A DNA stretch of 64,000 nt from Myxococcota bacterium. Its GTDB lineage: Bacteria > Myxococcota > XYA12-FULL-58-9 > JALHOP01. The position numbers were made by a program, and so were the translations under genes. A model generated the notes under the pieces. The model searched no databases, was not told the DNA's origin, and was given only the letters and a program-made list of their open reading frames with translations. The DNA lies in the NCBI GenBank assembly GCA_022842935.1, contig JALHOP010000008.1, positions 62,001 through 126,000 of the forward strand, in the 5' to 3' direction. Positions 10,580 to 20,547 of the stretch are shown in pieces (within the stretch, counting starts at the first letter, position 1; every line of letters starts with the position of its first letter).

Positions 10580-12451
10580 ATGACCGACACAATCCGCGTC
10601 AATAAGACCTCAATCGCCGGCCCCGCCGTCGCGGGCGATGCCACCCCAGCGGTCAAAACGTCCAAGAAAGCCTCCGCCGTCGCGCCGCAAGCTCCGGTCG
10701 CCGGCCTCGCCGCCGCCGCGAGCCGCCCCCAGCCGATGGCGATGGATGAAAGTCAATCGACGACACACATGGGCGGCGCGCTCAAAATCCTATCGGGCGC
10801 CGCTGCTTTCGGACCGCAGTTCAAGTTCATCAACATGAGCGAAGCGAAGGCAGTCGCCGCGGTCCACACCGCCATGGCCGCGCTCAAGTCGCGCCTCGCT
10901 TTTGCTCCTACGAAGCACGGCTTTGCCCCTGCCCTCGCAACGACCGACGAGCTCGGCAAGACCCACGTCCGCATGAATCGCCTCTATGACGGCATCCCGG
11001 TCTTCGGTGAGCAGGTCATCAGCCACCTCGACGCCAGCGGCAAGGTGGCGGACTTCACGGGCAACACGTTGCCAGCGCAGCTCCTCGTCGACACCAAGCC
11101 GACGCAATCGGCCGAGTCCGCTCTAGCGACAGCGCGCGCCTGCTTCTCCGGTAAAGCCGAGCAGATCGGCGGCCCAACGTTGCTCATCGCCAAGACCGAC
11201 GACGGCGTCTATCACCTCGCTCATCACGTCACGGTCGCGACCTACGGTGACGCCAGAGCTCCACGCAAGATGCACTACTTCGTCGACGCCCACAGCGGCG
11301 ACGTCTTGCCGCTCACCTTCAACGAGCACGGCGGCTTCATCCCGGACTTCCGGCTGCAGGGCGCTCGGGAAAAGGCGGCGACGCAAGGCAAGGCGTTCAC
11401 TGGTTCGGTCGTCGAAGGCACCGGCAACAGCATCTACCTGGGCAACGTGTCGCTCTCGACCACCGAAGAGAACGGAAAGTTTCTGCTGCGTGACCCGCAA
11501 GCCAACAACGCCGAAACCCGTGACGCGCGCAACGGCTCTGGCGGCACGGGCTCGAGCAACGTCGTCTTAACCGACAACAACAACAAGTGGGGCGAGACCT
11601 CCGACGACATGCGCCAGCGCGCGGGCATCGACGCGCAGTTCGGCGCCGTGCAGTTCCTGAAGTTCTTGAAGGACTTCTTCGGTCGCGATTCGCTCGACGG
11701 CAGGGGCATGCGCCTCTTGTCGAACGTCCACGTGCGCTCGAACTACGTGAACGCGTACTGGGATGGCTCGACGATGAACTACGGCGACGGCGACGGCCGC
11801 ACTGCCGGCCCCCTGGTCGACAAAGACGTCGCGAGTCACGAACCGATGCACGGCCTCACTCAGGCGGCAAACGGGTTGGTCTATCGCGGTGAGTCGGGCG
11901 CCCTGAACGAGGCGGCCTCCGACATCCTCGGCAGCGCCGGCTTCAGCTGGTTCCTCCGCGGCATGAAGGACACCGGTATCGAGACCGACTTCCTCATCGG
12001 TGAGGACTGTTGGACGCCAGCGACTCCTGGTGACGCGCTCCGCTACATGAACGACCCGATGCGCGACCGTGAACAGCGCAGCGGCGACCTGTACTCGCGC
12101 GACAACTACAAGTCCCGCTACACCGGCAGCGGCGACAACGGCGGCGTCCACTTGAACTCCGGCATTGCCAACAACTTCTTCTACCTCCTGAGCCAGGGCG
12201 GGACGAACCGTACCTCGCAGATGAAGGTCGAGAAGGGTATCGGCATGGAGAAGGCGCTCAAGATCTACTACCGCGCTCACACCGTCTACACGACGGCGAG
12301 CACGAACTTCGCGCAGGCGCGCGAGGGCTGGATCAAGGCGGCGACCGATCTCTACGGCGCCGATTCCGTCGAGACCAAGACGGTGATCCAAGCCTGCAAT
12401 GCGGTTGGCATCGAAGCACGTCCACGTGCCGACTTCGCGTTGGTCGCCTAG
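10580..12451 (+). CDS. M4 (thermolysin-family) metallopeptidase paralog 1, with unusual HEPMH zinc motif
   Basis: 623 residues from ATG 10580; the longer GTG start at 10514 gives an implausible basic leader. Order: Ala/Pro/Ser/Lys-rich N-terminus without a hydrophobic Sec signal (1-75), FTP/PepSY-like propeptide beginning FGPQF and including VRMNRLYDGIPVFGEQ (about 75-280), then the peptidase domain. Zinc ligands are H420, H424 and E444 (GALNEAASD), the correct 24-residue spacing, and the catalytic-His region HLNSGIANNFF is intact. The motif itself is HEPMH: Pro inside the active-site helix is very unusual, so activity is doubtful. The protein ends in an 11-residue tail after AVGIE, finishing ALVA. 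First of four tandem paralogs, 196 nt after the EAL gene. Confidence 0.93.
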   Translation: MTDTIRVNKTSIAGPAVAGDATPAVKTSKKASAVAPQAPVAGLAAAASRPQPMAMDESQSTTHMGGALKILSGAAAFGPQFKFINMSEAKAVAAVHTAMAALKSRLAFAPTKHGFAPALATTDELGKTHVRMNRLYDGIPVFGEQVISHLDASGKVADFTGNTLPAQLLVDTKPTQSAESALATARACFSGKAEQIGGPTLLIAKTDDGVYHLAHHVTVATYGDARAPRKMHYFVDAHSGDVLPLTFNEHGGFIPDFRLQGAREKAATQGKAFTGSVVEGTGNSIYLGNVSLSTTEENGKFLLRDPQANNAETRDARNGSGGTGSSNVVLTDNNNKWGETSDDMRQRAGIDAQFGAVQFLKFLKDFFGRDSLDGRGMRLLSNVHVRSNYVNAYWDGSTMNYGDGDGRTAGPLVDKDVASHEPMHGLTQAANGLVYRGESGALNEAASDILGSAGFSWFLRGMKDTGIETDFLIGEDCWTPATPGDALRYMNDPMRDREQRSGDLYSRDNYKSRYTGSGDNGGVHLNSGIANNFFYLLSQGGTNRTSQMKVEKGIGMEKALKIYYRAHTVYTTASTNFAQAREGWIKAATDLYGADSVETKTVIQACNAVGIEARPRADFALVA

Positions 12452-12461
12452 CAAGGCCTAC

Positions 12462-12515
12462 GGCGCGCCGTGACCACCACGCGGCGCGCCTTCTCTTCCT
12501 CTGCTCTCTTCCCCG
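12462..12515 (+). terminator. GC-rich hairpin plus pyrimidine tract between M4 paralogs 1 and 2
   Basis: Two copies of GGCGCGCC (12462-12469 and 12483-12490) pair into an 8-bp stem, extended by GTG/CAC, and are followed by a pyrimidine-rich tract (TTCTCTTCCTCTGCTCTCTT). This resembles an attenuator or intrinsic terminator, although the T content is lower than usual. Because each arm is itself palindromic, the arms could also fold alone. It would separate paralog 1 from paralogs 2-4. Confidence 0.4.
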
Positions 12516-12526
12516 GGTCCCGCGCC

Positions 12527-14428
12527 ATGAACGACATCCACAGCCTCGTTTCCGCCTTCACCAAAATCGCGCCTGACTCGTGTTTCGTGCCGCGCGGCGC
12601 AGCGCCATCTCAAAAGGCGGGCGTCACACCGGATGCTCCCGTCCTCGATCTGTCGGCATCGCTCATCCGTCCGCGACCGCTGTCCGCGCAAGCGAGCAAG
12701 CAGTCCGCTGGTGTGGCGGACGCCATCTCGGCACTCGCCGGCATCAAGGCGTTCGGTCCGCAGTTCAAGGTGGTTGGCTTGAGCGACGAGCGCGCCTTTG
12801 CCGCCACCGTCGCTAGCCTGAACGCAGTCAAGTCGAAGATCGTCGGAGCGGGCTTCGCCACGTCGCCACATGGCTTCGCGCCAGCCATCGCCTTCAAGGA
12901 TGAGCTCGGTCGCGTCAATGTCCGCATGAACCGTGTCTACGACGGCGTGCCGATCTTCGGCGAGCAAATCGTCTCCCATCTCGGCGCCGACGACACGGTA
13001 ACCGACATGACCGGCACCAAGCTCCCAGCGCGTCTGCCGGTCGACACAAAGGCAACCATCACGGAGGAAGCAGCGCTCTCGACCGCGCTCGCCGTTTTTG
13101 GCGCGCGGCCGACCCGGCCCGCGGGCTCGCGCCTGGTCATCATCGCCGACGATGCCGGCGCTTATCACCTCGCCCACCACGTGGTGCTTTTCGCACGCAC
13201 CGAAACGGGCGCGACCAAGATGCACTACTTCGTCGACGCGCACAGCGGCGCCATGTTGCCGCTCTCCTTCGACGAGCTCGGCGGCTATGCCGACCCGGAG
13301 CACGTCGAAGCGGTGCGCAAGTCGTTGCCGCGGGGTCCCCGCATCGGCGCGCCGACGCCATCACCCGCGCCCGCGATCGCGGATGGCAGCGGTAGCTCGG
13401 TCTACTCTGGTGTCGTGCCGCTCGCGACGACCAAGGACGCATCCGGTAAGTTCATCTTGCGCGACCCCGGCACGAGCAAGACCGAGACGCGTGACGCCTT
13501 GAACGGGGACGGCGGCGCCGGCTCTGCGAACAGGGTGTTCACCGACGATAACAACAAGTGGGGGGAGACAACGGACGACGCTCGGCAGCGCGCGGGCATC
13601 GACGCGCACTACGCGGCGGTTTCGTTCTTGAGTCTCCTCAAGCAGCTCTTCGATCGCGACTCGATCGACGGCAAGGGCCAGCAGCTGCTCTCCAACGTCC
13701 ACGTGCGTGAAAATTTCGTCAACGCCTACTGGGACGGCGACACCATGAACTACGGCGATGGTGACGGCCGTGTCGCTGGGCCCATGGTCGACCGCGACGT
13801 TGGCGGACACGAGATCACCCACGGCCTGACGCAGCACACGAGCGGCCTCATCTACCGCAACGAGTCGGGGGCTCTGAACGAAGCGGGCTCGGATATCCTA
13901 GGTAGCGCAGGGCTCTCTTGGTTCATGCGCGGCATGAAAGATCAGGGCATCGATCGCGACTGGCTCCTCGGAGAGGACTCGTTCACGCCCGGCAAAGAAG
14001 GCGACGCCTGGCGCTACATGGACAGCCCGACGCGCGACAAGGCGACGCGCGGCAACACCAACTACTCGCGCGACAACTACAAGGACCTCTACAAGGGCGG
14101 CGGCGACAACGGCGGCGTCCATATCAACTCGGGGATCGCCAACAACTTCTTCTTCCTACTCGCTGCCGGCGGCGAGAATGCGACCTCGAAGCTCAAGGTC
14201 GAAAAGGGCCTGGGCATGGAAAAGGCGCTGCGCATCTACTACCGCGCGCACACCGTCTACTTCACCCCGAGCACCAACTTCGCGCAGGCCCGTGTCGGTT
14301 GGGAGAAGGCGGCCGCCGATCTGTACGGCGCCGATTCCGTCGAGCTGAAGACTGTTCGTGAAGCCGCCGCCGCGGTCGGTATCGAAGCACCCCCGCCCGC
14401 ATCGGGCGGCGTCACTCTTGTCGGCTGA
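12527..14428 (+). CDS. M4 (thermolysin-family) metallopeptidase paralog 2
   Basis: 633 residues from ATG 12527 (MNDIHSLVSAFTKIAP). A GTG at 12470 would add a TTRRAF leader that superficially resembles a Tat motif but lacks the hydrophobic stretch and lies in a predicted hairpin, so it was not used. A low-complexity N-terminus (1-80) precedes the FTP/PepSY propeptide with VRMNRVYDGVPIFGEQ, then the peptidase domain: HEITH with zinc ligands H428, H432 and E452 (ALNEAGSD), and HINSGIANNFFFLL around the catalytic His. All catalytic elements are intact. The tail after AVGIE is Pro/Ala/Gly-rich and ends TLVG. It is followed 11 nt later by paralog 3, so they are probably cotranscribed. No Sec signal peptide is visible. 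Confidence 0.95.
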   Translation: MNDIHSLVSAFTKIAPDSCFVPRGAAPSQKAGVTPDAPVLDLSASLIRPRPLSAQASKQSAGVADAISALAGIKAFGPQFKVVGLSDERAFAATVASLNAVKSKIVGAGFATSPHGFAPAIAFKDELGRVNVRMNRVYDGVPIFGEQIVSHLGADDTVTDMTGTKLPARLPVDTKATITEEAALSTALAVFGARPTRPAGSRLVIIADDAGAYHLAHHVVLFARTETGATKMHYFVDAHSGAMLPLSFDELGGYADPEHVEAVRKSLPRGPRIGAPTPSPAPAIADGSGSSVYSGVVPLATTKDASGKFILRDPGTSKTETRDALNGDGGAGSANRVFTDDNNKWGETTDDARQRAGIDAHYAAVSFLSLLKQLFDRDSIDGKGQQLLSNVHVRENFVNAYWDGDTMNYGDGDGRVAGPMVDRDVGGHEITHGLTQHTSGLIYRNESGALNEAGSDILGSAGLSWFMRGMKDQGIDRDWLLGEDSFTPGKEGDAWRYMDSPTRDKATRGNTNYSRDNYKDLYKGGGDNGGVHINSGIANNFFFLLAAGGENATSKLKVEKGLGMEKALRIYYRAHTVYFTPSTNFAQARVGWEKAAADLYGADSVELKTVREAAAAVGIEAPPPASGGVTLVG

Positions 14429-14439
14429 GGAGAAGTTTC

Positions 14440-16323
14440 ATGGCTAGTGATCTCTTGGGTCCCGTTCGCCCCGCGCCCGTCGCACCGACGCAATCCCAGA
14501 TGGTCCTCGATGCGCAGCCGTCGGCGCTCGACGGCACTCCCCTGCCCTTCGAGCTGCCGCCCGCGGTGACCACCCGCTTCAGCGGACCCGCGGCACCCCC
14601 GCAGAGCGCGCTGACCTTTGGACCTCAGTTCCGCTACAGCCGGATGAGCGAGGCCGAAGCGGTCGGAGCGGCGAACGCGGCAGTCGCTGCCGCACGCAGC
14701 CAGGTCGCAAGCACTGGCTTCGTCGGGAACCCGCACGACTTCGTGGCGTCTCAGGCCTTTCGCGACGAGCTTGGTCGCAACCACGTGCGTATGGACCGCA
14801 CGTACAACGGCGTGCCGATCTTCGGCGCCCAAGCCATTGCGCATCTCGACGAACAAGGCCGAGTCGCGTCGATGACCGGGGCGCCAATCCCCTCGCGCCT
14901 GCCGCTCGACGTTACGCCCACGGTGAGCGCGGCGGTCGCCCAGGCAACAGCGGTCGCTTCTCTCGACGCCGCCCCGAAAGAGGTCGCGGCGCCCGAGCTC
15001 GTCATCGTGCAACTCGATGACGGCAGCTATCGGCTTGCTCATCATATCGTCGCGCTGGTCGACGAGCCCGAGCACGCGCCGCACCGGATGCACACGTTCA
15101 TCGATGCCCACAGCGGCGAGCTCTTGCCGCTTTCGTTCGAAGAGGGGTGCGGCTTTCTCGACGAGGCCGAAGTCGAGCGGACACGCACTCATCTGGGCAG
15201 CCGCGCCACTACGGGCTTCGCTCTGCGTCCGCAGGCAGCTCCGTCAGCCATTCCGCCAGGTCACGGCAACTCCATCTACTCGGGCGTCGTGCCGCTCGCG
15301 ACCTCGCGCGGCGGCTTCAATGGCTACATCTTGCGCGACCCCGCGAGTGGCAGCGAAACGCGGGACGCAGGCAATGCGCAGGGCCTCTTCGGCGGACTCG
15401 GGGGCATCTTCGGTGGCCGCAGTGCCGCGGGTGGGCAGCCCATCACAGACGCCAACAACGTCTGGGGCGAGCGCGGCGACAGTGAGCGCCAGCGGGCAGG
15501 TATCGACGCGCACTTCGCGGCGGTGAGCTACCTGCGCTACTTGCGCGAGATGTTCGGTCGCAACTCGATCGACGACCGTGGCGCCCGCATCATCTCGAAT
15601 GTCCACGTCCGCCGGAACCTGGTGAACGCCTACTGGGACGGTTCGAGCGTAAACTATGGTGACGGCGACGGCCGGGTCGCGGGCCCGATGGTCGACCCCG
15701 ACATCGCCGGGCACGAGATCACCCACGGTCTCATCGCGAACACCAGCCGACTCGTCTACCGTGGCGAGTCGGGGGCCTTGAACGAAGCAGCAGCCGACAT
15801 CCTCGGGAGTGCCGGATTGTCGTGGTTCCTCCGCGGCCGCAGCGACCAAGGCATCGCAACCGACTATCTGGTTGGCGAAAACGCGTTCACGCCGAGCATC
15901 GACGGCGATGCCCTTCGCTACATGGATCAACCATCGCGCGACCGACGCAACCCGACGAGCGAAATGTACTCGCGCGACAACGTGCGGAACATCTACCGAG
16001 GCGACCAGGATCGCGGCGGCGTTCACATCAACTCGGGCATCCCCAACAACTTCTTCTACCTGCTCGCGAACGGCGGCGCGAATCCAACCTCGGGTCAGCG
16101 GGTCGCGCAGGGCATCGGTATGGAGAAAGCCCTTCGCATCTTCTACCGGGCCAACACGGTCTACTTCACTCCCAACACCACCTTCGTCCAGGCTCGCGCG
16201 GCGTGGGAGCGCGCGGCCGAGGACCTCTACGGACGCGACTCGGCGGAGCTCCGCACGGTTCGGGCGGCAGCGAGCGCGGTCGGTATCGAGGCGCAAGCCA
16301 CAGCCGTCGGGCTGGTGAGCTAG
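14440..16323 (+). CDS. M4 (thermolysin-family) metallopeptidase paralog 3
   Basis: 627 residues; ATG 14440 is preceded by a strong ribosome-binding site (GAGGAGAAG). N-terminus Pro/Ala-rich without signal peptide (1-60), propeptide with FGPQF, VRMDRTYNGVPIFGAQ and MHTFIDAHSGELLPLSF, then the peptidase domain. Zinc ligands are H425, H429 (HEITH) and E449 (ALNEAAAD); HINSGIPNNFFYLL holds the catalytic His. Unlike its sisters it has a Gly-rich insertion (QGLFGGLGGIFGGRSAAGGQ, about residues 312-331) near the N-terminal part of the mature domain, before the conserved NNVWGE. The C-terminal tail is short and ends GLVS. Paralog 4 begins 4 nt after its stop, so translational coupling is likely. Confidence 0.95.
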   Translation: MASDLLGPVRPAPVAPTQSQMVLDAQPSALDGTPLPFELPPAVTTRFSGPAAPPQSALTFGPQFRYSRMSEAEAVGAANAAVAAARSQVASTGFVGNPHDFVASQAFRDELGRNHVRMDRTYNGVPIFGAQAIAHLDEQGRVASMTGAPIPSRLPLDVTPTVSAAVAQATAVASLDAAPKEVAAPELVIVQLDDGSYRLAHHIVALVDEPEHAPHRMHTFIDAHSGELLPLSFEEGCGFLDEAEVERTRTHLGSRATTGFALRPQAAPSAIPPGHGNSIYSGVVPLATSRGGFNGYILRDPASGSETRDAGNAQGLFGGLGGIFGGRSAAGGQPITDANNVWGERGDSERQRAGIDAHFAAVSYLRYLREMFGRNSIDDRGARIISNVHVRRNLVNAYWDGSSVNYGDGDGRVAGPMVDPDIAGHEITHGLIANTSRLVYRGESGALNEAAADILGSAGLSWFLRGRSDQGIATDYLVGENAFTPSIDGDALRYMDQPSRDRRNPTSEMYSRDNVRNIYRGDQDRGGVHINSGIPNNFFYLLANGGANPTSGQRVAQGIGMEKALRIFYRANTVYFTPNTTFVQARAAWERAAEDLYGRDSAELRTVRAAASAVGIEAQATAVGLVS

Positions 16324-16327
16324 CCTC

Positions 16328-18226
16328 ATGACGGACGTGGGCCGGAGCATCAACCCGTCCGCTCGAGCAAACATCGAGCATCGCTCGCTCGCGGTTGGCC
16401 CCAGGCCGTCCGGCGGCGGCGTTTGGTCATCGGCGGGCGGAGCTCGGCCGTCGGCCATCGTTGCAGCGACGGTCGGTACTCGGCCATCGACGCTCGCCGA
16501 GCGCCCCTCAGCCGGGGTCGTGCGCCCGTCGCCAAACGCGGTCGCCTCTACCGACAACCTGGGTCGTTCCCTCGCCCTCCTCTCCGCCAGCGAGATCTTC
16601 GGACCCGAATTCGACTACGTGCGGATGTCGGAGCGCGAGGCGGTGGCCGCCACCATGGCAAGCCTCACCGCTCTGCAGTCACGCATCATCGGCTCGGCCC
16701 ACGGCTTCGCGCCGCGGCTCGCCTTCCGCGACGAGATCGGTCGCACGAACGTTCGCCTGGCGCGCACCTACGACGGCGTTCCCATCTTCGGCTGCGAGGT
16801 GGTGACACACCTTGGCAGCGACGGCACCGTCCGCGATGTTACGAACGGCACCGTGCCGACCGACCTCGCGCTCGACACCAAGCCGCGCATCAGTGAACGG
16901 GCCGCCATGGCTACTGCCGCGCGAGAGTTCGCTGCCGCGCCCGAACGAACGCAAGGTCCGAATCTGGTCGTCGTAAGGCTCGATGACGGCGAATACCGCC
17001 TCGCGCACTACATCGCGCTATCCGCTTTCACGGACGGAACGCCTCGGCGCACCCACTATTTCGTCGACGCACACAGTGGTGAGCTCTTGCCGCTCACCTT
17101 CAGCGATCGCACGGGCGTGCGTCACGAGCACCTCGCACGTCAAGTCGCGAAGGTTCGTGGCCAGACTATCGCGGCAACGCGCGCTGACCGCGATGCGCCG
17201 GCCGAAGGGACCGGCAACTCAATCTTCAGCGGGAGCGTCCCCCTAACCACGACGCGCGACGGCGACCGGTACATCTTGCGCGATCCCACCAACAACGACG
17301 CCGAGACGCGCGACGCGCACAACGGTTCAGGTGGCACCAGCTCGCGCAACACCGTTTTTACGGACAACGACAACCGCTGGGCAGGCCCAGGTGACGACGC
17401 CCGCGTTCGCGACGCGGTCGACGCGCAATACGCCGCGGTTCAGTATCTGCGCTACCTGCGTGAGATCTTCGGGCGCAACTCGCTCGATGACCGTGGCAAG
17501 CGCCTCATCTCGAACGTCCACGTCTACAACAACTACGCCAACGCCTTCTGGGACGGCGAGACGATGAACTACGGCGACGGTGACGGTGGCGAGAACCTCT
17601 CGCAAACCGACTCCGACACTGGCGGTCACGAGGCGACCCACGGCCTCACGGACGCAACGAGCCGCCTCATCTATCGTGGCGAGTCCGGCGCGCTGAACGA
17701 GGCCGGCTCCGACGTCATTGGCGCAGCCGGCTTCAATTGGTTCCTGCGGGGGGCGCGCGGGGCGGGCGTGCTCCGTGACTATCTGTTGTTCGAGGACAGC
17801 TACACCCCCAGCAATCCCGACGACGCCATCCGGTACATGAACGACCCGGTGAAAGACGGCGCTTCGCGTGACAACTACCGCACGCGCTACACGGGCAGCG
17901 CCGACAACGGCGGCGTTCACTGGAACTCCGGCATCGCCAACAATTTCTTCTATTTGCTGGCGGAAGGCGGCGCGAACCGCACCTCTCAGGCGCGCGTCGC
18001 GCAAGGCATCGGCATGGAGAAGGCGCTGCGCATCTACTACCGCGCCCACAACGTCTACTTCACCCCCGATACGACCTTCCAGGCCGCCCGCATCGGCTGG
18101 CTCAAAGCCGCGACCGATCTCTTCGGGGCGGACTCGGCCGAAGTCCGCACGGTAGCGCAAGCCGCTGACGCCGTCGGCATCCCCGGCCCCCCCCGGCCGC
18201 CGACGACCGTGGCCCTGCTCGCCTAG
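16328..18226 (+). CDS. M4 (thermolysin-family) metallopeptidase paralog 4
   Basis: 632 residues from ATG 16328, 4 nt after paralog 3. The N-terminus (about 20-75) contains five R-P-S units spaced 7-14 residues apart, with no Sec signal. Propeptide: FGPEF, VRLARTYDGVPIFGCE and HYFVDAHSGELLPLTF. Peptidase domain: HEATH with zinc ligands H434, H438 and E458 (ALNEAGSD), and HWNSGIANNFFYLL around the catalytic His, so it is probably active. Just before the zinc motif it has GENLSQTDSDTGG where paralogs 1-3 have a RVAGPMVD-like stretch. The tail after AVGIP is Pro-rich and ends ALLA. It is the last peptidase before the ATP-grasp gene, 154 nt downstream. Confidence 0.95.
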   Translation: MTDVGRSINPSARANIEHRSLAVGPRPSGGGVWSSAGGARPSAIVAATVGTRPSTLAERPSAGVVRPSPNAVASTDNLGRSLALLSASEIFGPEFDYVRMSEREAVAATMASLTALQSRIIGSAHGFAPRLAFRDEIGRTNVRLARTYDGVPIFGCEVVTHLGSDGTVRDVTNGTVPTDLALDTKPRISERAAMATAAREFAAAPERTQGPNLVVVRLDDGEYRLAHYIALSAFTDGTPRRTHYFVDAHSGELLPLTFSDRTGVRHEHLARQVAKVRGQTIAATRADRDAPAEGTGNSIFSGSVPLTTTRDGDRYILRDPTNNDAETRDAHNGSGGTSSRNTVFTDNDNRWAGPGDDARVRDAVDAQYAAVQYLRYLREIFGRNSLDDRGKRLISNVHVYNNYANAFWDGETMNYGDGDGGENLSQTDSDTGGHEATHGLTDATSRLIYRGESGALNEAGSDVIGAAGFNWFLRGARGAGVLRDYLLFEDSYTPSNPDDAIRYMNDPVKDGASRDNYRTRYTGSADNGGVHWNSGIANNFFYLLAEGGANRTSQARVAQGIGMEKALRIYYRAHNVYFTPDTTFQAARIGWLKAATDLFGADSAEVRTVAQAADAVGIPGPPRPPTTVALLA

Positions 18227-18380
18227 CGCCTCGGCTTCGATTTTCTTCAGCCTGAGCAACGAATTGGCTAGCGGTATTTCAATAGCCATCAGCCGCGCCA
18301 GCCTCCTCTAGCCACCCGTCTCGCCAACAAAATTGGGCGACTTCGCAACGATCGCGTGATTAGTGACGATAAGTCAGGGT

Positions 18381-19970
18381 ATGGGAAGCAGCTCGATAGC
18401 TGATCAGGGGCTGTCTCGGCTCAGTCAGCCCCCAACCTCCGAGGCGAAGGAAAACGCCCAGCCACCGGCTGTGAGCTTTGCCGTTGGCCCGGGAGCTCAA
18501 ACCGTCGCGGCGCCGGTCATGCAGACCCCCCATGGGAGCATGCCGGGCAACACGCTGTCGTTCGTCGTCCCCAACGAAGTGCTCGTCAACGGGCGCCGCT
18601 TGGACCTGAGCGTCGCGGGCCTCATTGGCATTGCTCGGGGGCCCCAGGTGCTCGAGCAGGAGGGCCTGCTCGGCAGCTTCACGACCGCCACCTTGAAGGC
18701 CTTCACGACCCGCCTGCAGGTTCTGCCGGGGGTTGGTGAGGTCGTCCGTCAGGGCGCCGAGACCTGGTTGCGCGGGAGCACCTGGCTTGGCAGCGCGGGT
18801 GCTGGTGTCAGCGCCGCCCTCGGCCATCTCGTCGATACGCGGCCACGCAACGTGATCCACTTCGACATGACCGCGCTCGATATTGACTTGAACGCGATCT
18901 ACTGTGGCGCTCAGTACGGCATGCGCGGACTCGGCATCGCGACGAATGCGTCCGACATCGTGGTCTTGCCCGAGGATATGCCGCAGGAAGGCATCGACGC
19001 GGTTCGCCGCTCGCGGCGGCTCGCTGGGTTGCCGAACCCGTACATCATCAGCGAGGGCGACTTCCGCAAGCATCGCCGCGAGCTCGAGCGCGAGTACGGG
19101 CCCGTGGAAATGTTCATGCGCGACGCCAAGCACGTGGACCAGAAATCCGTCGCGTGGAGCAAGATCCTCAACAACAAGCTCGACGGAGCCACCATCTGCC
19201 AGCGACTCGGCGTTCCGCTCCCACAAACGTTCCACAACGACGTCGCGGGCAAGCTCGACTACACCCGCATCCCCGCAAACACCCCGCTGATCCTCAAGGC
19301 CGAATACTCGGCCGGGGGTTCGGGCGTGAAGTTCGTCGCGAACGTCGATGACCTCAAGGAACGCGTAGCCGCGCTCAACGCGACGGACCGCATCCAGGTC
19401 CAGCGCTGGGTGCCCGGCGAAGACATCAGCTTCCTGTTCCACTGCGGCGAGCACGGCGCGACGCTCATCTCGTCGAGTCAGCAGGAGATGGAAGGAGGCG
19501 TGAGCCACGTCGGAAATGCCATCCCAGGTGACCGCCATCGCATCCGTGATGCCTACGCGACGGCCATGAAGCCGTTCGCGGACTACGCGCAGCGCAAGGG
19601 CTTCCGCGGTCACTTGGGCATCGATGCGCGCATCAGCGACGTCGATGGCGAGGTCGATTTCATCGAATGCAACCCGCGCCGCACCGCAGTGTCGACACCG
19701 ACCGTCATCGCGACGCAGCTCGGCTTCCCGGAGTTCTGTCACCGGCAAATGGTGTTCAAGGACAAAGCGAGCCTCGACATAACGCTCGATCGATTCGCTT
19801 ACCGTCCCGACAACAAGCAGGGCGTGGTGATCACGACCTGCCTCGGTAAGCCCGGGAACAAGTACAAGTCAGAGTTCGTATTTTTGGAGAGCGGCGCCGA
19901 CGGGACGAAGTTCCGCGACGAGGTGATCCGCTGGGCAAAGGAGATGGGTTACCTCTACGACGCGAAATGA
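18381..19970 (+). CDS. ATP-grasp domain ligase-like protein next to the M4 peptidase array
   Basis: 529 residues from ATG 18381 (a GTG at 18363 adds six residues; neither has a clear ribosome-binding site). After a Ser/Pro/Ala-rich N-terminus (1-55) and a pre-ATP-grasp region (about 60-230), an ATP-grasp fold is visible: nucleotide-binding Lys306 in PLILKAEYSAGGSGVKF, a Gly-rich loop after it, and the metal-binding IECNPRR with E429 and N431. ATP-grasp enzymes activate a carboxylate as acyl phosphate and join it to an amine, thiol or hydroxyl; some modify protein termini or RiPP precursors. The substrate is unknown. Same strand and close to four M4 peptidases, hence a possible partner in their modification; this is inference only. 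Confidence 0.87.
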   Translation: MGSSSIADQGLSRLSQPPTSEAKENAQPPAVSFAVGPGAQTVAAPVMQTPHGSMPGNTLSFVVPNEVLVNGRRLDLSVAGLIGIARGPQVLEQEGLLGSFTTATLKAFTTRLQVLPGVGEVVRQGAETWLRGSTWLGSAGAGVSAALGHLVDTRPRNVIHFDMTALDIDLNAIYCGAQYGMRGLGIATNASDIVVLPEDMPQEGIDAVRRSRRLAGLPNPYIISEGDFRKHRRELEREYGPVEMFMRDAKHVDQKSVAWSKILNNKLDGATICQRLGVPLPQTFHNDVAGKLDYTRIPANTPLILKAEYSAGGSGVKFVANVDDLKERVAALNATDRIQVQRWVPGEDISFLFHCGEHGATLISSSQQEMEGGVSHVGNAIPGDRHRIRDAYATAMKPFADYAQRKGFRGHLGIDARISDVDGEVDFIECNPRRTAVSTPTVIATQLGFPEFCHRQMVFKDKASLDITLDRFAYRPDNKQGVVITTCLGKPGNKYKSEFVFLESGADGTKFRDEVIRWAKEMGYLYDAK

Positions 19971-20008: not shown

Positions 20009-20119
20009 GACCGATGACCGATGACCGATGACCGATGACCGATGACCGATGACCGATGACCGATGACCGATGACCGATGACCGATGACCGATGACCGATG
20101 ACCGATGACCGATGACCGA
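20009..20119. repeat. Tandem heptamer array, about 16 copies of GACCGAT
   Basis: A 111-nt run of perfect 7-nt repeats (GACCGAT on the plus strand, ATCGGTC on the minus strand) fills the gap between the convergent ATP-grasp and dksA-like genes. The same heptamer forms a second, degenerate array at 28206-28296. It does not code for either gene; no spacers, so it is not CRISPR. Confidence 0.97.
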
Positions 20120-20127
20120 GGTGCGCC

Positions 20128-20547
20128 TTAGCGCCCTGCTCGGTTACCTTTTTCTCGCTCGAGCTGCTCTTTGTACTCCAGTGAGTACCGCGTCCACGGG
20201 CGGATCTCGAGGCGGCGGAGCTCGATAGGCTCGCCGGTCCCTTCGCACACGCCGTACGTGCCATGCTCGAACTTCGCGAGCGCATGATCGATCTCGGCGA
20301 GGAGCTTGTGCTCTTTGTCGGCCAAGCGAAGCAGGTAGGCCTGGTCGGAGTGCCGCGTCGCCATGTCCATTTCGTCGGCGAGGTTATCGCGGTCCTCGGT
20401 GGCCTGCGTGACGTGACTATCGAGACGGGAAAGGACGCGGCCGCGCTCTTCGAGCAGCGCCTTCTTCAGCCCATCAAGATCTTTCTTGGTGAGCTCGCGG
20501 TCTTCTTGTTCCTCTTGTCCCTTACGTCCACGCTTGGCCAATGCCAT
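20128..20547 (-). CDS. DksA/TraR-family RNA-polymerase-binding regulator lacking most zinc cysteines
   Basis: 139 residues; AGGAG precedes the ATG at 20547. A basic N-terminus (MALAKRGRKGQEEQ) is followed by a coiled-coil segment (about 20-95, rich in Leu, Glu, Lys and Arg) and the C-terminal DksA/TraR region YGVCEGTGEPIELRRLEIRP. Classic DksA has four cysteines (C-x2-C and C-x2-C); here only one Cys remains, the others being replaced (CEGT, RYSLEY), so zinc is probably not bound. Zn-independent DksA variants are known and can still bind the RNA polymerase secondary channel, where they act with ppGpp. Convergent with the ATP-grasp gene, from which it is separated by the heptamer array. Confidence 0.9.
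   Translation of the reverse strand: MALAKRGRKGQEEQEDRELTKKDLDGLKKALLEERGRVLSRLDSHVTQATEDRDNLADEMDMATRHSDQAYLLRLADKEHKLLAEIDHALAKFEHGTYGVCEGTGEPIELRRLEIRPWTRYSLEYKEQLEREKGNRAGR

What the first reader, a model, noticed from the sequence alone, without database searches (positions are those of the whole stretch)
10580..19970. Four tandem M4 metallopeptidases without Sec signals followed by an ATP-grasp enzyme
Seen: four paralogs of 623-633 residues with a thermolysin-type propeptide and catalytic domain, gaps of 75, 11 and 4 nt, then an ATP-grasp gene on the same strand 154 nt later. None of the four starts with a hydrophobic signal peptide, although M4 enzymes are normally secreted through Sec. 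Each, and the ATP-grasp protein, begins with a Pro/Ala/Ser-rich low-complexity stretch of 55-80 residues. Known: ATP-grasp ligases modify protein termini (RimK), peptides (PGM1-like) or RiPP precursors (graspetide enzymes). Inference: the enzyme may modify or load the peptidases, or the N-termini may be signals for a non-Sec export route (for example contractile injection systems).
Basis: partly seen in the sequence, partly recalled or inferred. Interest (0 to 1): 0.75.

Follow-up and report, generated by a model that had tools for sequence, protein, structure and literature searches.

The report
Signal-less M4 protease array, Myxococcota
Four neighbouring genes encode thermolysin-like protein-digesting enzymes that lack the usual export tag; they are a local expansion of an old branch of such enzymes shared with predatory myxobacteria, so they probably leave the cell by another route, while the ATP-using enzyme next door is most likely an unrelated neighbour.

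Summary
Four M4 (thermolysin-type) zymogens (10580-12451, 12527-14428, 14440-16323, 16328-18226) with intact zinc sites lie in tandem, followed by an ATP-grasp gene (GTG 18363 or ATG 18381, to 19970). None has a Sec-like signal, even from upstream starts. The genome belongs to the Myxococcota. All six of its M4 genes are signal-less, as is the related branch in Myxococcus, Corallococcus, Archangium and Hyalangium. These form one supported clade apart from signal-bearing M4s, so the loss is old and not an annotation error. The four tandem genes are one lineage-specific expansion (support 100/98). The ATP-grasp link is not supported: no ortholog in 194 other Myxococcota genomes and none beside any other M4 locus. 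Contractile injection is not supported: marker genes were not found. The genome does hold a type III-like export apparatus resembling Myxococcus T3SS*, whose effectors are unknown, and PopC is a precedent for signal-less protease secretion. A new observation: the four enzymes share a C-terminal motif, [FV]xL[VL][AGS]-COOH (3 of 200,000 shuffles reach it).

The parts
10580..12451 (+). M4 metallopeptidase 1 (623 aa): disordered N-terminal tail, FTP propeptide, catalytic domain (HEPMH), C-terminal tail ...DFALVA
12527..14428 (+). M4 metallopeptidase 2 (633 aa), HEITH, C-terminal tail ...VTLVG
14440..16323 (+). M4 metallopeptidase 3 (627 aa), HEITH, C-terminal tail ...VGLVS; GAGGAG ribosome-binding-like site upstream
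16328..18226 (+). M4 metallopeptidase 4 (632 aa), HEATH, C-terminal tail ...VALLA
10580..10804 (+). N-terminal low-complexity, predicted disordered tail of peptidase 1 (residues 1-75); the other three have equivalents of similar make-up
12413..12448 (+). C-terminal extension beyond the M4 fold in peptidase 1 (EARPRADFALVA); equivalents end each of the other three genes
12462..12490 (+). terminator-like hairpin (11 pairs, 10 G-C) plus pyrimidine-rich tail between peptidases 1 and 2; may separate gene 1 from genes 2-4; the total terminator-like count is no more than in shuffles
18363..19970 (+). ATP-grasp enzyme (535 aa; alternative ATG start 18381), P/S/A-rich N-terminus; not conserved with the M4 genes

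Best explanation
The array is a lineage-specific tandem expansion of a Myxococcota branch of thermolysin-type M4 zymogens that lacks the Sec signal and carries a disordered P/A/S/T-rich N-terminal tail instead. SHOWN: array, intact catalytic sites and propeptides, absence of signals, single clade, monophyly of the four, absence of contractile-injection markers, presence of a type III-like export apparatus. INFERRED: the enzymes are made as inactive zymogens in the cytoplasm (kept inhibited by the propeptide), leave the cell by a non-Sec route with the disordered tail as the likely address, and digest protein outside the cell or in prey; several diverged copies widen the range of substrates. 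Candidate routes are the type III-like apparatus (as in Myxococcus T3SS*) or a PopC/Oar-like route. The ATP-grasp enzyme is a lineage-restricted ligase-type protein that most probably only sits downstream.
For: Own genome: six M4, none with a signal. Myxococcaceae relatives: same kind of tails, no h-region. M4s with lipoprotein or Sec-like signals exist in three other Myxococcaceae loci (L056-L058) and in Actinomycetota, so the contrast is real. Tree: the 33 signal-less rows form one group (96/97), the six own M4s one clade (100/99), the four tandem ones one clade (100/98). Disordered tail, folded propeptide. Export apparatus SctJ, L, N, O-like, Q-like, R, S, T, U at G000 C6; all 66 M4-positive Myxococcota genomes also carry an SctU/FlhB-family gene, 96 of 129 negatives do. 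PopC precedent: signal-less protease secreted by M. xanthus (PMC6434023). T3SS* is needed for prey lysis and its effectors are unknown (PMC12075869).
Against: No export was measured; sequence cannot show it. The N-terminal tails share no clear motif across the window's four and the Myxococcaceae members. The M4 array is not beside the type III-like genes (different contig), and the co-occurrence is confounded by relatedness and counts flagellar FlhB. An intracellular role, as for protealysin, is not excluded.
Confidence: 0.55

Rival explanations
1. The enzymes are intracellular proteases that never leave the cell, like protealysin of Serratia, and work on the cell's own proteins or are set free on lysis.
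For: No signal of any kind. Protealysin is an M4 enzyme described as intracellular and not secreted (PMC9505478). Most window neighbours are housekeeping genes.
Against: Six diverged copies of a full-size thermolysin-type zymogen in one genome look like digestive enzymes. Protealysin is paired with the inhibitor emfourin in one operon; no such gene was seen next to the array in the Pfam scans (small ORFs not scanned).
Confidence: 0.27
2. The ATP-grasp enzyme modifies the peptidases, for instance at their shared C-terminal tail or N-terminal tail, or makes a peptide that inhibits or loads them.
For: Same strand, 136-154 nt downstream, no terminator-like site between; similar composition of N-termini. 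The four array enzymes, and neither their two own-genome paralogs nor the Myxococcaceae relatives, end in [FV]xL[VL][AGS].
Against: No ortholog in 194 other Myxococcota genomes or in the GTDB scan; absent from the flanks of all other M4 loci. The profile match to RimK is not significant (E 0.015).
Confidence: 0.08
3. The peptidases are cargo of a contractile injection system, loaded through the N-terminal tail.
For: eCIS cargo lacks Sec signals and has a disordered hydrophilic N-terminus (PMC11297309).
Against: No sheath, baseplate J or T6SS sheath match in a 97% complete genome, with positive controls ringing.
Confidence: 0.03
4. The true starts lie elsewhere and a Sec or Tat signal has been missed.
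For: Peptidases 1 and 2 have in-frame GTG starts upstream.
Against: Upstream extensions hold no hydrophobic segment, gene 4 has no room upstream, and all relatives read in the clade lack one too.
Confidence: 0.02

Closest known systems
Thermolysin/bacillolysin (M4) zymogens
   Same: FTP propeptide, M4 catalytic and C-terminal helical domains, intact zinc site
   Different: no Sec signal; disordered N-terminal tail; C-terminal extension after the fold
Protealysin-like M4 proteases (Serratia protealysin, grimelysin)
   Same: M4 enzyme without secretion signal; intracellular synthesis
   Different: long FTP-type propeptide rather than the short protealysin one (own knowledge for the latter); no emfourin seen beside the array
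PopC of Myxococcus xanthus
   Same: signal-less protease in a myxobacterium; secreted full length by a route that needs the Oar transporter (PMC6434023)
   Different: subtilisin family, not M4; no sequence comparison made
FibA of M. xanthus
   Same: M4 protease of a myxobacterium, extracellular matrix (PMC3236237)
   Different: FibA has a predicted signal sequence and PPC domains; not of this signal-less architecture
PGM1-type peptide ligases (pheganomycin) and related ATP-grasp enzymes
   Same: ATP-grasp fold with ATP and metal-binding motifs; a profile made with a PGM1-related row finds PGM1 (3wvq, E 1.6e-8)
   Different: the enzyme alone finds no solved structure; about 25-27% identity to the nearest relatives; a profile without the PGM1-related row does not find PGM1

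Membership tests
M4 (thermolysin) peptidase family | HExxH plus third-ligand glutamate and catalytic histidine | tested here: met
   conserved in all four; Pfam matches above cut-off
M4 (thermolysin) peptidase family | FTP-type propeptide | tested here: met
   PF07504 in all four; propeptide modelled with confidence
M4 (thermolysin) peptidase family | Sec-type secretion signal (usual, not defining) | tested here: not met
   no h-region
Protealysin-like proteases | short protealysin-type propeptide | tested here: not met
   Pfam scan gives FTP only
Protealysin-like proteases | emfourin inhibitor gene in the operon | tested here: inconclusive
   none among the scanned window genes; small ORFs not scanned, emfourin model not searched genome-wide
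Contractile injection system cargo | a contractile injection system in the genome | tested here: not met
   PF04984, PF04865, PF05943 absent
Type III (T3SS*-like) substrate | non-flagellar type III export apparatus in the genome | tested here: met
   SctJ, L, N, R, S, T, U and Q/O-like genes at C6; no secretin seen in the 35 kb examined
Type III (T3SS*-like) substrate | translocation depends on that apparatus | not testable with these tools
   needs mutants
PopC-like secreted proteases | Oar/TonB-dependent secretion without signal | not testable with these tools
   CarboxypepD_reg matches are present in large ORFs (924-1190 codons), but none shown to be Oar
PGM1-type peptide ligase | specific sequence match over the full length | tested here: inconclusive
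RimK / graspetide ligase | match to RimK or graspetide ligase models | tested here: not met
   only ATP-grasp_3 (Pfam) and weak, below-cut-off NCBIfam hits to other ATP-grasp families; RimK only at E 0.015

The most novel reading that the evidence does not exclude
The array enzymes are predation effectors exported by the type III-like apparatus through their disordered N-terminal tails. Their shared C-terminal tail [FV]xL[VL][AGS]-COOH, which resembles the end of this organism's own tmRNA degradation tag (ANSDKEYALAAA as given by ARAGORN), is a degradation or recognition handle that the neighbouring ATP-grasp enzyme caps or extends to stabilise the stored zymogens.
Probability: 0.05. Interest if true: 0.85.

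Novelty: new variant of a known kind. Interest (0 to 1): 0.45.

Why it matters
The effectors that the Myxococcus needleless type III apparatus uses to lyse prey are unknown, and how signal-less proteases such as PopC cross the inner membrane is open. An old, widely conserved myxobacterial branch of full-size protease zymogens without Sec signals, with true signal-bearing M4s in related genomes as controls, gives concrete candidates for both questions. Reporter fusions of the tails would be a direct test.

Tried and rejected
ATP-grasp relatives: GTDB scan found none, Myxococcota searches only domain-level hits at 26-32% identity, plasmid records gave Acaryochloris at 25% over 60% and PGM1-related at 26%. 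An own-genome search with the two-row ATP-grasp profile found no paralog. Single-sequence AlphaFold of the ATP-grasp failed (pLDDT 36), so no fold search was made. The second SctU/FlhB copy lies about 25 kb from one of the other M4 genes, but that cluster holds flagellin and hook genes by eye, so it is flagellar and the nearness is not evidence. FibA was considered as the experimental precedent but has a predicted signal sequence. No Rfam match in the window; no PHROG or PADLOC match for the ATP-grasp or peptidase 4. Literature searches did not find a description of the signal-less clade; the library is open-access only.

Full report
OBSERVATION. The window lies in contig 8 of a 6.28 Mb, 97.4% complete genome. 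Its phylum is Myxococcota: named relatives of the M4 genes are Myxococcus, Corallococcus, Archangium and Hyalangium, and the M. xanthus locus groups with genomes marked 'same phylum' in the tree. All four carry FTP, Peptidase_M4 and Peptidase_M4_C and keep the zinc and catalytic residues, so all are likely active.

NO SIGNAL, AND NOT BY CHANCE. Hydrophobicity scans of the N-termini and their in-frame upstream extensions find no signal-like core. AlphaFold with 16 relatives models the propeptide well and leaves residues 1-75 unstructured. The genome has six M4 genes in all; the other two, on contigs 1 and 2, also begin with proline-rich tails and no signal. In a search of 195 Myxococcota genomes, 66 (this one included) have a close match. 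The members of the clade whose N-termini were read lack a signal and begin with P/A/S/T-rich tails. Three other M4s in the same family of genomes (L056, L057, L058) begin with lipoprotein or Sec-like signals, and nearly all actinobacterial relatives have a hydrophobic core. The scan is a simple Kyte-Doolittle measure; SignalP was not available, a few values lie near the border (1.6-1.9; for window peptidases 1 and 4 the highest values lie in the propeptide helix, not at the N-terminus), and one actinobacterial row scored low because the region tested missed its N-terminus, though it scored high.

ONE OLD BRANCH, ONE LOCAL EXPANSION. A maximum-likelihood tree of 49 sequences puts the 33 signal-less sequences in one group (96/97), the six of this genome in one clade (100/99) and the four of the array in one clade (100/98). 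Rooting is by midpoint and two long branches lie next to the group, so the exact sister is unsure. At 51-57% identity of the other three to the first the four are not recent copies.

OTHER SIGNAL-LESS HYDROLASES. Near the Myxococcaceae M4 loci, an M23 peptidase and two alpha-amylases begin with the same kind of low-complexity tail. This suggests that the tail is not specific to M4 enzymes.

THE ATP-GRASP GENE. It has no ortholog in 57 relatives or in 194 other Myxococcota genomes, none was found in the GTDB scan (which finds close relatives only), and it is absent from the flanks of all other M4 loci, many of which extend 10 kb. Tandem M4 pairs and one triple occur in Streptomyces and other Actinomycetota without it. 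Nearest relatives are an Acaryochloris plasmid protein (25% over 60%) and PGM1-related proteins. ATP and metal-binding motifs are kept. The link to PGM1 rests on a profile that contains a PGM1-related row and disappears without it. It may be co-transcribed, since no terminator-like site lies in the gap, but a functional link to the peptidases is not supported by conservation.

A SHARED C-TERMINAL TAIL. The Myxococcaceae relatives aligned end at the fold (AVGV plus one or two residues). The four array enzymes continue for 11-14 residues after AVGI and end FALVA, VTLVG, VGLVS, VALLA. The similarity of the last five residues is reached by 3 of 200,000 shuffles of the tails, and one of 164 other gene calls fits the pattern. 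The two other M4s of the genome have long proline-alanine tails that end TSLRRR plus one residue. Shared ancestry alone could keep part of this similarity. The pattern resembles the end of the organism's tmRNA tag, which ARAGORN gives as ANSDKEYALAAA; this is a lead, not a test.

EXPORT ROUTES. Contractile systems: three marker families absent, with controls positive. Type III: two SctU/FlhB genes; the one on contig 2 lies in a flagellar cluster, the one on contig 6 lies with SctJ, SctL, SctN, SctR, SctS, SctT and SctO/SctQ-like genes, with a FliG-like protein and no secretin found in the 35 kb looked at. That resembles the needleless T3SS* of M. xanthus, which is needed for prey lysis and whose effectors are not known (PMC12075869). 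All 66 M4-positive Myxococcota genomes carry an SctU/FlhB-family gene, against 96 of 129 negatives, but relatedness confounds this. PopC shows that a myxobacterium can secrete a signal-less protease (PMC6434023).

VERDICT. The array is real, and the absence of Sec signals is an old property of a myxobacterial branch. Non-Sec export is the most likely meaning, with an intracellular role as the main rival.

Noticed in passing
window 20009-20119: Perfect tandem repeat of GACCGAT, about 16 copies, between the ATP-grasp gene and a gene on the minus strand (20128-20547) whose product looks DksA/TraR-like by eye.
   Followed up: no
C-terminal ends of 10580-12451, 12527-14428, 14440-16323, 16328-18226: Shared C-terminal motif [FV]xL[VL][AGS]-COOH on the four array peptidases, absent from the Myxococcaceae relatives aligned.
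   Followed up: partly
L001 and L002 (own genome, contigs 2 and 1): Two further signal-less M4 genes with long proline-alanine tails ending TSLRRRA / TSLRRRT.
   Followed up: partly
L174-L175 (own genome, contig 6: 70000-105000): Non-flagellar type III-like export cluster with SctJ/L/N/R/S/T/U, FliG-like and YscO-like genes, no secretin seen.
   Followed up: partly
L061:2919-3617, L062:13929-15989, L069:16296-18001: Signal-less M23 peptidase and alpha-amylases of Myxococcaceae with the same kind of low-complexity N-terminal tail.
   Followed up: partly
L095 (9932-12106) and related loci: A second form of the signal-less M4s carries a P_proprotein domain between propeptide and catalytic domain.
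   Followed up: no
window 12462-12490: Terminator-like GC-rich hairpin after the first peptidase gene, which may split the array into two transcripts.
   Followed up: partly
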